DNA of 60,660 nucleotides. Origin: Alteromonas sp. ALT199 (GTDB lineage Bacteria > Pseudomonadota > Gammaproteobacteria > Enterobacterales > Alteromonadaceae). A program made the position numbers and the translations under genes. The stretch covers positions 1-60,660 of the forward strand of contig NZ_JAHHDX010000024.1 in assembly GCF_018619335.1 (NCBI RefSeq), given 5' to 3'. Within the stretch, counting starts at the first letter, position 1. Each line of letters starts with the position of its first letter. The notes below the pieces were generated by a model that was not told where the DNA came from, made no database searches, and saw nothing but the letters and a program-made list of their open reading frames with translations. Shown here piece after piece: positions 41,339 to 45,308 of this stretch.

Positions 41339-41499
41339 CGATTTTGAACTTAGCATTAGCCCGTAATATAGAAAGTTGATTGCAACGGTAAATAAATGGT
41401 ACGCGTGGCAAGTTAGACGTGTCTCGCAAAATAAATAAATGTTGCAAAACTATACTTCTATTCAGTTATATATATTCAGAGTTTTGTGTAACTTTTCCC

Positions 41500-41517
41500 T
41501 TACCCAATATTGGGTAA
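41500..41517. promoter_or_regulatory. Perfect 18-bp palindrome, candidate operator
   Basis: TTACCCAATATTGGGTAA is a perfect palindrome ending 21 bases before the start codon of the bacteriocin-like peptide gene. It is where a repressor would block transcription, or where the mRNA leader could form a 9-bp hairpin without a U-tract. I favour an operator. Confidence 0.55.
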
Positions 41518-41538
41518 ACTCATAAAAGGAATTATACA

Positions 41539-41772
41539 ATGCAAGAATTAAGTTTTACTGAAATAGAGAACGTTTCCGGCGGCTGTGAAGAGCACTGTTG
41601 GGGCGATTTTAGTTTTGCAGGCTTTATGGCCTCAGTAGGCGCAGGCGCTTTAGGTGGTATGGCTGCAGGCTGGGGCGGCGCTGCCTTAGGCGGTTTATCT
41701 GGTGGCTTAGGTTACGCAGGTGGCAAAATTGGCGACAAAATGTCAGAACGCACGACCGAGTCTGACGAATAA
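41539..41772 (+). CDS. Double-glycine-leader bacteriocin-like peptide
   Basis: A 77-residue precursor. Residues 1-15 (MQELSFTEIENVSGG) fit the double-glycine leader of class II bacteriocins and microcins: a Glu-Leu-Ser/Thr opening, a helical middle and cleavage after Gly-Gly by a C39-type peptidase. The predicted mature peptide has 62 residues, begins CEEHC with two cysteines that could form a disulfide, and contains a glycine-rich hydrophobic middle with several GxxxG patterns (GALGGMAAGWGGAALGGLSGG) before a charged end (KIGDKMSERTTESDE). The start has an AAAGGAATT ribosome-binding site. No C39 transporter is in the window, so export would need a system encoded elsewhere. An antimicrobial role is inferred from leader and composition only. 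Confidence 0.72.
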   Translation: MQELSFTEIENVSGGCEEHCWGDFSFAGFMASVGAGALGGMAAGWGGAALGGLSGGLGYAGGKIGDKMSERTTESDE

Positions 41773-41779
41773 AGATCTT

Positions 41780-41802
41780 GGGGGCTTCAAGCCTCCGCTT
41801 TT
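41780..41802 (+). terminator. Hairpin between peptide and membrane-protein genes
   Basis: GGGGGC-TTCAA-GCCTCC (one G-U pair) followed by GCTTTT lies just after the peptide gene. It ends a few bases before the TAGGAG ribosome-binding site of the next gene. It probably lets most transcripts stop after the peptide gene while some read through to the membrane-protein gene. Confidence 0.65.
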
Positions 41803-41814
41803 AGGAGCTATTTT

Positions 41815-42033
41815 ATGAATATCTCGATAATACAAATACTCAAGTATGTTACTTACATGCTTTCTATCATTGTAATAAGCGTGTTTATGCTTAAAACCGT
41901 CTCATATTATTTCAGCTTTGATGGGTATGCTGAATTGCTATCAACATCAACGGTTATTTTTCTCACTACGCTGTTTTGCACCCTTGGCGCTAAAAAGCTT
42001 CACGTCTTCCCTAGGCGGAATATAGAAATTTAG
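41815..42033 (+). CDS. Small two-helix membrane protein, candidate immunity protein
   Basis: A 72-residue protein with two predicted transmembrane helices (VTYMLSIIVISVFMLKTVSYY and LLSTSTVIFLTTLFCTLGAK) and a basic C-terminal tail (HVFPRRNIEI). I recognise no family. It follows the double-glycine peptide gene by 42 bases in the same direction, behind a TAGGAG ribosome-binding site and a weak terminator. This order and size match many bacteriocin-immunity pairs, where small membrane proteins protect the producer. The role is an inference from position and topology. Confidence 0.55.
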   Translation: MNISIIQILKYVTYMLSIIVISVFMLKTVSYYFSFDGYAELLSTSTVIFLTTLFCTLGAKKLHVFPRRNIEI

Positions 42034-42055
42034 CCGCATCTGCCAAATTGCGGCT
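42032..42055 (+). terminator. Hairpin after the small membrane protein gene
   Basis: AGCCGCA and TGCGGCT arms start at the stop codon and enclose 10 bases. The following T-tract is weak. It likely marks the end of the peptide/membrane-protein transcript and separates it from the sortase target. Confidence 0.55.
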
Positions 42056-42292: not shown

Positions 42293-44746
42293 ATGCTATT
42301 TTTAAAAACACCCAAGCGCGACTACTTCAACCCTACTAATACGCATAAACCCTTATTTCGAGAGCGACAACATTCGCCTAAATCTCGCCACCATTTATTG
42401 CTCATTCTTATATCATTTTTATGTTTTTTACTGGGTGTAGCGGTAAGCCCTGCAAGTCGTGCAGCGTCTGGAGAGCTAATGATGCAAAGCCAGGATAAAG
42501 CATCTACACCAGCCCTTTTGCATTCAACCCACGTTGACCTGCAAGTAAACGGAATGATTGCACATGTCACCTACTCTCAAACGTTTACTAACAATAGTGA
42601 TGAATGGAAACATGCGCTCTATACCTTCCCTCTAAATGAAAATGCGGCGATAAATAGTATGGAAATGCTTATTGGCGATAGGATAATCCGTGGGCAAATA
42701 AAGCCGAAATCACAAGCTAAAGAAGCGTTTGAAGCAGCAAAAAAGGCAGGCAAAAAAGCAAGTTTAACGCAGCAACAGCGCCCTAACTTATTCACCCAGC
42801 ATCTAGCCAACATTGCTCCACGTGAACAGATCACGGTAACGATAAAGTACATACAGCAGGTTGCGTTTGATAATGGAGAATTTAGCTTTCACCTTCCTAC
42901 AACCCTTACTCCTCGTTATATCCCGGGCATTCCTACAAGAAATTTAAGCGATACCAATTTGATTGAACATGCTTACCCTCACGACGTTAGAGCAAACAAT
43001 CACGAAGAAGAAAATCTCAATGACGCGGATAGCGACGAAGCTAAAAGTAAAAGTGAACGAGCCTCGCAAAGCTTAAATCACAACGATAGCCGTGTAACTG
43101 GCAGTAACGCATTCATTTCCGGGTGGTCACTACCCACAAATGAAGTTAGTGACGCCGATAAAATAACACCATTTATGTTACCAACGTTGCCCGATAGCAA
43201 TACGAATCAGCTTTCTTTCAATGCAACTATAAATGCGGGGATGCCTCTTAATTCAATTTACAGCAAAGGCCATAAACTTAACTGGCATTCTATTGAAGAC
43301 ACTAAGCATCTATATCGCGTTCGGCTTGATGACAAACACGTCACCATGAATAAAGATGTGTGGTTGCACTGGCGCCCTCTGAAAAATGCTACCCCGCAGG
43401 CTGCCTATTTTTCTGAAAATATAGATTCAGACCACTACGCGCTAGTTATGTTAACACCGCCTCAAGTTATCCCTGACGATCTTCAAGACTTTCCACGTGA
43501 TGTTACCTTTATCATAGACACATCTGGGTCGATGGGAGGGCGACCAATTGAAGATGCCAAATCCGCTTTAAAGATGGCAATTAAAAAGCTAGACGCAAAA
43601 GACAGATTTAACATTGTGGCATTTAACTCTAGCTATACGAAACTGTTCAGCCAGCCCACTAATACTAAGCCGCATAATATAAATACCGCCTTATCTTTTA
43701 TATCCAGACTGAGCGCCAATGGAGGAACTGAAATGGCCGGCGCGCTGAGCGAGGCACTAACCGCACAACATAAAGAAAACTACATCAAGCAAATTATATT
43801 TATTACTGATGGCGCTGTTGGAAATGAAGCAGCCCTATACTCGCTGATTGAACAAGAGCTAGGAAGCGCAAAGCTTTTTACGGTGGGGATTGGAAGTGCA
43901 CCTAATAGCTATTTTATGACCCGCGCTGCACAATTTGGACGTGGTAGTTACGTTTTTATCGACAGCGCGAGTAACATACAAAAAGAAATGGAGCACTTGT
44001 TCAGCAAGCTTGAAAGCCCTGTTCTAAGCAACCTTTCGTTAACGCTGCCTAAAAGTATGCGGTTTAACAAGGGCGTTGAAGTTTACCCCAAACGCCTACC
44101 GGACTTGTACGCCGGCGAACCACTGCTAATAAATCTGAAAGCGGCTGATTTTGCAGATGTTGCTAACCACAAAAGTGATAAGGGTAAAAACAATATCTTA
44201 GACAATAGTGTAGTTCTCACTGGTAAACTGACCGACAAAAATGGAAATCTTCATAAATGGCAGCGCAGTATCCAGGCGCAATATTTAACATGTGACCACA
44301 GAAATGATGCATCGCAAGTTTCACCTGCACGCTTACCTCAACGCAACGGAATAGGCACTGCATGGGCACGCAAAAAAATTGCGGCGTTAATGGATGAAAA
44401 AGCCCTTGGCAGAGATGAACAAGACGTTAAAAGCGACATAATTGATGTAGCCATACCACACAAGCTCATTACTGCTTACACCAGCTTTGTTGCTATTGAA
44501 GAGGTGGTATCAAGACCTGAATCGGCTAACGTTCAATCGCAGAATATAAAAAACCTGATGCCGCAGGGTACACAAATGCGCGCCGTTAGCTACCCTCAAA
44601 CCTCTGCCGGGATTAATTTTCATCTCGCTATTGGTGCTCTTTCTCTAGTCTTACTGCTACTGCTTTACTCAGGTGAAACTCACCGCTTTCTTTTAAGGCA
44701 ATATCGTATTTTTAAAAAAGACGAAAGAGTAACGCATAATGGTTAA
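42293..44746 (+). CDS. VIT/vWA sortase-target protein (marine proteobacterial type)
   Basis: An 817-residue envelope protein. After a signal or anchor helix (about 34-52) comes a VIT domain (about 75-200; ALLHSTHVDLQVNGMIAHVTY, TFPLNENAAINSMEMLIG), then a long linker, and a von Willebrand factor A domain (about 400-580) with an intact MIDAS motif DTSGSM (Asp409, Ser411, Ser413) followed by TDG. Near the end is a sorting motif YPQTSAG at 767-773, a membrane helix (LAIGALSLVLLLLLY) and a basic tail (RFLLRQYRIFKKDERV), the classic sortase-substrate layout. The motif starts with Tyr and reads YPQTS rather than LPxTG. It overlaps the sortase gene by 8 bases. It is probably the sole substrate of that sortase. 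Confidence 0.88.
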   Translation: MLFLKTPKRDYFNPTNTHKPLFRERQHSPKSRHHLLLILISFLCFLLGVAVSPASRAASGELMMQSQDKASTPALLHSTHVDLQVNGMIAHVTYSQTFTNNSDEWKHALYTFPLNENAAINSMEMLIGDRIIRGQIKPKSQAKEAFEAAKKAGKKASLTQQQRPNLFTQHLANIAPREQITVTIKYIQQVAFDNGEFSFHLPTTLTPRYIPGIPTRNLSDTNLIEHAYPHDVRANNHEEENLNDADSDEAKSKSERASQSLNHNDSRVTGSNAFISGWSLPTNEVSDADKITPFMLPTLPDSNTNQLSFNATINAGMPLNSIYSKGHKLNWHSIEDTKHLYRVRLDDKHVTMNKDVWLHWRPLKNATPQAAYFSENIDSDHYALVMLTPPQVIPDDLQDFPRDVTFIIDTSGSMGGRPIEDAKSALKMAIKKLDAKDRFNIVAFNSSYTKLFSQPTNTKPHNINTALSFISRLSANGGTEMAGALSEALTAQHKENYIKQIIFITDGAVGNEAALYSLIEQELGSAKLFTVGIGSAPNSYFMTRAAQFGRGSYVFIDSASNIQKEMEHLFSKLESPVLSNLSLTLPKSMRFNKGVEVYPKRLPDLYAGEPLLINLKAADFADVANHKSDKGKNNILDNSVVLTGKLTDKNGNLHKWQRSIQAQYLTCDHRNDASQVSPARLPQRNGIGTAWARKKIAALMDEKALGRDEQDVKSDIIDVAIPHKLITAYTSFVAIEEVVSRPESANVQSQNIKNLMPQGTQMRAVSYPQTSAGINFHLAIGALSLVLLLLLYSGETHRFLLRQYRIFKKDERVTHNG

Positions 44747-45308
44747 GTTTAAAGTACTCATAAGTTTATTACTTATTGCGGCTGCGACTGTTGGGTTTAG
44801 TAATGCTGCGTGGATAACGCTAAAAGCAGAGTTAGCCCAGGTGTTAATCAAACAAGCGTGGACAGAAACCTTACAAACGGGGGTTCAAGTTAAACCTTGG
44901 CAGTGGGCAGACACTTGGCCTGTAGGACGAATAATACACCCTAACAGCAATACAGATTTGTTCATACTTGAAGGCGCCCAAGGAAATGCGTTGGCTTTTG
45001 GCCCAGGAAGACATATTAATGCAGGAGAGCTAGGTAGTGGAAGCAGCGTTATTGGGGGTCATAAAGACACGCATTTCGCCTTTCTTGAGAAAGTAAAAGT
45101 TGGCGATGCGCTACAGCTTCAAACGCCTGATGGAATATGGCACCCCTATCGAATCTCGTCTAAGCGTATTGCTGATATCAAAAACCAAACGCTGAATGTT
45201 CAGCTAAATCAAAAGAGGCTGTATTTAGTCACTTGCTACCCATTTCATACCATCGCCCAAGACAATCATTTACGGCTGGTGGTTGAACTAAAATTGGGGT
45301 CAGAGTAA
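44739..45308 (+). CDS. Class GN sortase
   Basis: A 189-residue sortase of the type restricted to Gram-negative bacteria. A membrane anchor near residues 5-27 is followed by the transpeptidase domain with His108 (IGGHKDTHF), Cys166 (LVTCYPF) and Arg179 (NHLRLVVE), giving the complete catalytic triad. It cleaves the C-terminal signal of a partner protein and joins it to an acceptor; the partner is the VIT/vWA protein encoded just upstream with an 8-base overlap. Its last three residues (Gly-Ser-Glu) and stop codon fall inside a GGGGTCAGAGTAA repeat end, so the native C-terminus may have been trimmed. Confidence 0.9.
   Translation: MVKFKVLISLLLIAAATVGFSNAAWITLKAELAQVLIKQAWTETLQTGVQVKPWQWADTWPVGRIIHPNSNTDLFILEGAQGNALAFGPGRHINAGELGSGSSVIGGHKDTHFAFLEKVKVGDALQLQTPDGIWHPYRISSKRIADIKNQTLNVQLNQKRLYLVTCYPFHTIAQDNHLRLVVELKLGSE

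What the first reader, a model, noticed from the sequence alone, without database searches (positions are those of the whole stretch)
41500..42055. Candidate bacteriocin operon with palindromic operator and small membrane protein
A 77-residue peptide with a clear double-glycine leader, a CEEHC N-terminus and a glycine-rich core is preceded by an 18-bp perfect palindrome and followed by a hairpin and a two-helix, 72-residue membrane protein. The order peptide, partial terminator, small membrane protein is what a bacteriocin-immunity unit should look like. I recognise neither protein from known families. No C39 peptidase/exporter is nearby, so secretion must depend on a transporter encoded elsewhere.
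Basis: partly seen in the sequence, partly recalled or inferred. Interest (0 to 1): 0.75.

Follow-up and report, generated by a model that had tools for sequence, protein, structure and literature searches.

The report
Marine microcin and its immunity gene
This Alteromonas-type genome carries a two-gene unit that likely makes a small secreted peptide for inhibiting rival bacteria, next to a predicted membrane protein that would shield the producer, and beside the same neighbouring gene related genomes hold both genes, only the presumed shield, or neither.

Summary
In detail: a 77-residue double-glycine-leader peptide, an 18-bp palindrome, a 72-residue two-helix membrane protein. Bacteriocin plus immunity is supported; "operator" is not. 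The peptide belongs to an Alteromonadaceae family of class II microcin-like peptides with a near-invariant mature start, C-x-E-[HY]-C-W-G-D; two relatives pass Pfam's class II bacteriocin cut-off, this peptide does not. No exporter is adjacent, but the genome encodes a CvaAB-like pair with an intact C39 triad. Of 59 genus genomes, 10 have this C-terminal type, each followed by the membrane protein; 6 more have only the membrane protein, none only the peptide. Beside the YihY gene the unit is complete in three genomes, absent in others (G022, G034), and in G024 reduced to the membrane protein under the retained promoter region. Two further genomes (G047, G069) keep an open membrane-protein frame beside a truncated or decayed peptide: the pattern expected of toxin and immunity. 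The palindrome is one version of a hairpin kept in place, not in sequence, before the start codon, so more likely a 5'-UTR RNA hairpin. A conserved box about 90 bp upstream of the start codon is the better control-site candidate. Killing and protection are untested.

The parts
41448..41469 (+). conserved dyad box AACTATACTTCTATTCAGTTAT (consensus AACTRTnC-N6-TCAGTT), 91 bp upstream of the start codon; presumed regulator or promoter site
   Evidence: found in 15 of 17 CxE[HY]CWGD-type genus loci at -85 to -94 (9 of 11 clades), each scored with a matrix that left out its own clade; only exact match to the pattern in the genome; best score in the window, but it was in the training set there
41500..41517 (+). 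palindrome TTACCCAATATTGGGTAA, read here as a 5'-UTR stem-loop
   Evidence: position kept, sequence not:
41524..41531 (+). ribosome-binding site AAAAGGAA
   Evidence: sequence shows directly
41539..41772 (+). class II microcin-like precursor peptide, 77 aa
41539..41583 (+). double-glycine leader MQELSFTEIENVSGG
41584..41610 (+). start of the mature peptide, CEEHCWGDF: near-invariant family motif C-x-E-[HY]-C-W-G-D
41780..41796 (+). stem-loop between the two genes (6 bp stem)
   Evidence: sequence; not a recognised terminator
41815..42033 (+). two-helix membrane protein, 72 aa, presumed immunity protein
42032..42055 (+). stem-loop after the presumed immunity gene (7 bp stem, no T-run)
   Evidence: sequence

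Best explanation
The locus is most likely a stand-alone toxin/immunity unit: the 77-residue precursor is predicted to be cut after its double glycine and exported by the CvaAB-like C39 exporter encoded elsewhere in the genome, the freed 62-residue glycine-zipper peptide would then insert into and permeabilise the inner membrane of close relatives, and the 72-residue membrane protein would protect the producer. Shown: the leader, the conserved core, the exporter with the catalytic triad spacing of CvaB, the pairing of this C-terminal type with this membrane-protein family, and genomes that kept the membrane protein without the peptide. Inferred: cleavage, export, uptake route, membrane target, killing and protection. 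The transcript is inferred to begin near the palindrome, which would then fold as a 5' hairpin (stabiliser or start-site spacer) and not act as a repressor operator; the box at 41448-41469 is the candidate control site, regulator unknown.
For: Family: 20 of 59 genus genomes match profile A1 at E<=0.001: 10 with the window's KIGDKMSERTT-type C-terminus (L004-L013), 7 with the same CxE[HY]CWGD start but another C-terminus (L014-L020), 3 with unrelated cores (L021-L023). All 20 have a small hydrophobic ORF just downstream. 12 of 21 members of A2 match Bacteriocin_IIc and 15 of 21 MccV at E<=0.1; P0012 (32.8 bits) and P0015 (28.2) pass the 27.1 cut-off. Exporter: C110 carries HlyD/CvaA-like and C39-ABC genes; best solved relatives are bacteriocin transporters (4ry2, E 4.6e-85), and the alignment places Cys29/His102/Asp118 at the spacing of CvaB Cys32/His105/Asp121. 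Pairing: this immunity family directly follows 10 of 10 SERTT-type peptides and 0 of 7 others with the same start; the two immunity sets do not align as profiles (probability 0.7%). One-sided presence: both 10, immunity only 6, peptide only 0, neither 43, of 59 genomes. In place: G024 keeps box, hairpin, RBS and start codon but reads straight into an intact immunity frame; in G022 and G034 the YihY and VIT/VWA matches lie 52 and 143 bp apart with no unit between. G047 keeps promoter and leader, has lost the core, immunity frame open; G069 lacks the leader, has a stop before the core remnant, immunity frame open. Hairpin: 7 of 13 lineages at p<=0.05, against 0, 0, 2, 1, 0 of 13 in five control windows.
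Against: No activity data. The peptide itself misses the MccV cut-off (15.5 against 27 bits, E 0.026), is not reported for Bacteriocin_IIc and reaches no NCBIfam cut-off. G042, a single-contig genome with a WTD-type peptide, has no C39 ABC exporter, only a 350-aa C39-like frame. Exporter presence does not discriminate: 57 of 59 genomes have a relative. The pairing count is partly circular: 9 of the 10 SERTT-type immunity proteins were rows of the search profile A3; the 6 orphans were not. The presumed immunity proteins differ far more than the toxins (54-57% against 89-97% identity between G000, G038, G029), odd for a tight lock and key. The peptide model is poor (pLDDT 60). Orphans G010, G033, G054 are one related set; dN/dS there is 0.29-0.45 and not significant for the pair tested (Fisher p 0.10). 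G024 shares only the left neighbour of the window's site. The hairpin window and the boxes were chosen after looking at the loci.
Confidence: 0.74

Rival explanations
1. The peptide is an exported signal or biofilm peptide (like the double-glycine small secreted proteins of Synechococcus), and the membrane protein is its receptor or accessory.
For: The same leader type serves non-toxic peptides (start of the abstract of PMC4997328 in the search listing); the membrane protein diverges faster than the peptide.
Against: Relatives' glycine-zipper cores match bacteriocin families; a receptor kept without its signal in 6 genomes, but never the signal without the receptor, fits immunity better; patchy presence, 20 of 59 genomes.
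Confidence: 0.13
2. The palindrome is a DNA operator bound by a dedicated repressor.
For: Perfect 18-bp palindrome in the window; near copy TTACCCAATGTTGGGTAA in G038.
Against: Other lineages have unrelated stems at the same place (TACCAG-ATA-CTGGTA, TTCCCC-GCTGT-GGGGAA, GCACTG-AATATC-CAGTGC, AGGCAATCAA-GGG-TTGATTGCCT); the centre is not palindromic in G038, G029 and G024; no regulator gene adjacent; no further copy in the genome above the control count.
Confidence: 0.15
3. The two ORFs are the two peptides of a two-peptide (class IIb) bacteriocin.
For: Weak match to the class IIb lactobin/cerein model in 3 of 21 members.
Against: The second ORF has no double-glycine leader and two long hydrophobic helices, and its relatives stand without the peptide in six genomes.
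Confidence: 0.03
4. The unit is controlled by LexA (SOS), like many colicins (recalled), through the box at 41448.
For: The box lies on the LexA frame: the only other hits of its pattern with one mismatch are at dinB and recA, and L007 has a full CTGT-N8-ACAG.
Against: The window has CTAT-N8-TCAG, missing one base of each half; of 14 boxes, 8 have A at that left position and 9 have T at that right one, which points to another protein or a weak variant.
Confidence: 0.25

Closest known systems
Class IIa microcins (MccV/colicin V type)
   Same: short double-glycine leader, glycine-rich hydrophobic core, small membrane immunity protein, C39 ABC exporter plus HlyD-type fusion protein
   Different: below the MccV Pfam cut-off; exporter unlinked; two cysteines at the start of the mature peptide; no plasmid match, on single-contig 4-5 Mb genomes in G007, G025, G038 and G048; confined to Alteromonadaceae in our searches
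Bacteriocin_IIc (PF10439), 'Blp family class II bacteriocin'
   Same: leader and glycine-zipper core; P0012 and P0015 pass the cut-off; NCBI uses this name for P0012 and P0029
   Different: the window's peptide itself is not reported; no peptide-pheromone system beside it (Blp cluster make-up is recalled)
Class IIb siderophore microcins (MccH47, MccM, E492)
   Same: PDB profile search touches microcin E492 weakly (E 1.6)
   Different: no modification genes beside it and no serine-rich C-terminus; tail is KIGDKMSERTTESDE
Orphan immunity genes of E. coli bacteriocins (PMC12546727, passages read)
   Same: immunity kept without toxin
   Different: that paper's plasmid clusters favour gain of immunity; G024, G047 and G069 here show remnants of the lost toxin gene's promoter, leader or core beside the kept gene

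Membership tests
class II microcin | precursor with double-glycine leader and small core | tested here: met
class II microcin | small membrane immunity protein beside it (51-216 aa in verified cases, PMC9746304 passages) | tested here: met
   72 aa, two helices, 42 nt downstream; that it protects is inferred
class II microcin | C39 peptidase ABC exporter with Cys/His/Asp triad in the genome | tested here: met
   unlinked
class II microcin | membrane fusion protein | tested here: met
   HlyD_3 55.6 bits, adjacent to the exporter
class II microcin | TolC outer-membrane partner | tested here: inconclusive
   an OEP-family protein exists in the RTX-type secretion locus; a TolC was not searched for in the genome
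class II microcin | antibacterial activity | not testable with these tools
   none
MccV (PF17508) | score over curated cut-off | tested here: not met
   15.5 against 27 bits
Bacteriocin_IIc (PF10439) | score over curated cut-off | tested here: not met
   window peptide not reported; relatives P0012 and P0015 met it
class IIb siderophore microcin | modification genes nearby and serine-rich C-terminus | tested here: not met
   neighbouring ORFs and the tail sequence
SOS (LexA) regulon | CTGT-N8-ACAG box | tested here: not met
   window has CTAT-N8-TCAG

The most novel reading that the evidence does not exclude
Alteromonas runs a dispersed microcin regulon. Solitary toxin/immunity cassettes, each with the same promoter box and a 5' hairpin, share one exporter in trans. 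The constant C-x-E-[HY]-C-W-G-D head is a common docking or entry module. The C-terminal half is exchanged together with an unrelated immunity protein. Producers are converted in place into immune non-producers by deletion of the toxin alone.
Probability: 0.35. Interest if true: 0.68.

Novelty: new variant of a known kind. Interest (0 to 1): 0.5.

Why it matters
Verified class II microcins numbered 10 by 2022-2024, most from E. coli (abstract starts of PMC9746304 and PMC11494933); newer Serratia work and a Moraxella bacteriocin appear in the same listing (PMC13101503, PMC2761928). The main texts of PMC9746304 and PMC11494933 do not contain the word Alteromonas. A defined marine family with producer, immune non-producer and empty states beside one gene gives a clean natural system for bacteriocin competition. 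It also bears on a question left open in PMC12546727 (passages), whether orphan immunity genes arise by losing the toxin or gaining the immunity: G024, G047 and G069 look like toxin loss.

Tried and rejected
Operator: rejected as first choice, since the stem sequence is not conserved. Lux-type control by the GerE protein beside the exporter: no box-like match upstream of the exporter or of its neighbouring double-glycine peptide, so left open. Rfam: one sub-threshold match overlapping the palindrome (RF03084, 20.1 against 41.2 bits, E 0.53), taken as chance. Sigma-70 promoter scan: no + strand hit. Plasmid and viral searches: no relative. Class-wide search: 2 of 369 genomes, the window's own and G633, whose match lies in an 844-residue frame and is taken as chance, not read. 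L095 (Victivallales) sits inside a long frame that looks to me like a pyruvate-formate-lyase relative: chance. Six weak immunity matches (E 0.0016-0.0079, in G001, G021, G026, G029, G057) were dropped as chance; I read only L133 and L134, which lie in a ClpX-like frame. The first orientation of the genus loci was wrong for 11 of 20 loci and was redone. Family-level loci L074 (G155) and L078 (G347) were not readable by my script. Fold search of the models was not run: the peptide model is too poor and two-helix hairpins match anything. PHROGs: only weak matches. Limits: the box matrix used boxes picked by eye and mononucleotide shuffles; the box pattern search gave 3 hits against 4 for its control; the hairpin window was chosen after seeing the loci.

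Full report
What is there. The window (G000:C57, 4.63 Mb genome in 178 contigs) carries at 41539-41772 a 77-residue precursor, MQELSFTEIENVSGG + CEEHCWGDF..., and at 41815-42033 a 72-residue membrane protein, 42 nt apart, between a BrkB/YihY-family gene and a VIT/VWA gene. The 18-bp palindrome at 41500-41517 ends 21 nt before the start codon and is unique in the window; elsewhere in the genome only three matches with 3 mismatches exist, not above the control. G+C content does not stand out. The genus is Alteromonas by inference: the unit of same-genus genome G029 (L006) reads the same as that of Alteromonas portus (L085).

Family. The one-sequence search gave 16 proteins at E<=1, best 3.4e-36; the profile search gave 33 at E<=0.01. 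Source names, where shown, are Alteromonas, Glaciecola/Alteromonadaceae and Thalassotalea. Of 395 genomes drawn from the family 24 match at E<=0.001, 8 of them weakly (E>1e-6) and, where read, with other cores. Of 369 drawn from the class only G000 and one apparent chance match. Within the genus 20 of 59 match. Read in the right orientation they form three groups: 10 with the window's KIGDKMSERTT-type tail, 7 with the same mature start but other tails (mostly ending WTD), 3 with unrelated cores. In the 22-row alignment A5, G14 G15 C16 C20 W21 G22 are invariant and E18 and D23 nearly so. G048, not in A5, has tyrosine in place of the first cysteine (L012). The window's own peptide is under the MccV cut-off and not reported for Bacteriocin_IIc, but two relatives pass the latter. 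I therefore say it works like a class II microcin and is kin to Bacteriocin_IIc members, and do not file it under either Pfam family.

Exporter. The C39 search of the genome gives three places, none on the window's contig. C110 has a CvaA/HlyD-like gene, a 755-aa C39-ABC gene, a 103-aa GerE regulator, another double-glycine peptide and an ATP-grasp gene. The 755-aa protein aligns to solved bacteriocin transporters, with Cys29, His102 and Asp118 at the spacing given for CvaB in PMC9746304. The second place is an RTX-type secretion locus whose C39 match starts at profile position 16, which I take to be past the catalytic cysteine; the third is a lipoprotein-like 313-aa frame. Relatives of the exporter occur in 57 of 59 genus genomes, so their presence is no test. 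G042, peptide-positive, lacks one: a real counter-case for that WTD-type locus.

Membrane protein as immunity. All 20 genus loci have a short hydrophobic ORF directly after the peptide; 19 show two hydrophobic segments by my cut-off and L014 one (the ORF of L016 was read from its twin locus L089). The SERTT-type peptides use one immunity family (10 of 10; 9 of these proteins were rows of the profile); the other seven cores do not (0 of 7), and the two sets do not align as profiles. The genus search with that profile gives 20 genomes at E<=0.01, of which 16 are at E<=1e-10: the 10 peptide carriers plus G003, G010, G024, G033, G047 and G054, which lack a SERTT peptide. G010, G033 and G054 share one locus type, so these six are about four events. 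No genus genome has the SERTT peptide without it. G033 carries a WTD-type peptide as well as the orphan SERTT-type immunity gene.

States beside the YihY gene. G000, G038 and G029 have the full unit between YihY and VIT/VWA. In G022 the matches to the two neighbours lie 52 bp apart and in G034 143 bp apart, against 842 bp in the window, with no unit between. G024 (one contig) has, after YihY, box, hairpin and ribosome-binding site followed directly by an intact immunity frame; its right-hand neighbours differ from the window's. In the other loci printed near this gene (13 of the 20 fetched loci were printed) other genes, among them a transporter-like one, follow YihY. Around another site, shared by G058, G025, G018 and G048, G047 keeps box and leader, has lost the core, and keeps an immunity frame 74-78% identical to theirs. 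G069, outside the genus, lacks the leader, has a stop before the core remnant, and keeps an open immunity frame. These fit loss of the toxin with the neighbour kept. Whether the orphans are under selection is suggestive only: dN/dS 0.29-0.45 within the related trio, 0.23-0.30 for G047 against carriers, Fisher p 0.10 for the one pair tested.

A result that does not fit simply. Between G000, G038 and G029 the immunity proteins are 54-57% identical while the peptides are 89-97% and YihY 95-97%. Immunity dN is 0.27-0.30 against 0.02-0.07 for the peptide; immunity dS is also higher (1.1-1.7, near saturation), so older divergence or exchange of the immunity gene is possible.

Palindrome and box. In 13 lineages (one locus each) I looked for the best simple stem between -55 and -15. 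Seven reach p<=0.05 against dinucleotide shuffles (mean z -2.27); five upstream control windows gave 0, 0, 2, 1 and 0 (mean z -0.23 to 0.20). L016 and L065 have none; L007, L008, L017 and L018 are not significant. A first test on 17 loci, some related, with whole-window folding gave mean z -1.28. Stems differ in sequence, so structure is the kept feature, which points to RNA. The window's stem has no T-run after it, so it is no terminator; L019's has one and L020's four Ts. The box AACTRTnC-N6-TCAGTT lies at -85 to -94 in 15 of 17 CxE[HY]CWGD loci (9 of 11 clades, several loci being near copies); L018 has its best match elsewhere and L020 none, and of the three other-core loci only L023 has one, at -98. 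It resembles the LexA frame (dinB and recA boxes are the other near hits) but the window's copy departs from it in both halves.

Literature. Searches for Alteromonas with bacteriocin and double-glycine (0 papers), with microcin (17) and with bacteriocin and immunity protein (5) were read as listings; passages of PMC8749424 (a reference-list mention only), PMC11494933, PMC9746304 and PMC12546727 were read. None of what I saw describes this family. Only open-licence papers are held. NCBI's names already call two relatives bacteriocins.

Verdict. A likely class II microcin with its immunity gene, new as a family and in its arrangement, not a new kind of system. Confidence 0.74 for toxin/immunity; the RNA-hairpin reading of the palindrome about 0.65; the regulator is unknown.

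Noticed in passing
L024:10186-11863 (G000:C110): Beside the exporter: a 103-aa GerE-type regulator, a second double-glycine peptide (68 aa, ...LAEAQLFEVSGG + cysteine-free core) and a RimK-like ATP-grasp protein; looks like a modified-peptide cluster sharing the exporter.
   Followed up: partly
L024:11955-12800: DUF4258 protein followed by an HTH_3 protein with a weak MqsA match: a possible toxin-antitoxin pair next to the exporter cluster.
   Followed up: no
L012 (G048): Otherwise intact peptide with the first cysteine of the mature part replaced by tyrosine; bears on whether a Cys1-Cys5 disulfide is needed.
   Followed up: no
L128, L129, L130 (G033, G054, G010): A box-like sequence about 200 bp upstream of the orphan immunity frame, with no readable peptide between in the one locus translated (L128): possible promoter remnant.
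   Followed up: partly
window 42293-45308: VIT/VWA protein followed by a sortase: a sortase/VIT pair in a Gram-negative genome, downstream neighbour of the unit.
   Followed up: no
L076 and L084 (G114): Two further double-glycine, glycine-rich peptides with small membrane ORFs, about 5.5 kb apart on one contig, without the CxEHCW motif: other bacteriocin-like families in the same bacterial family.
   Followed up: no
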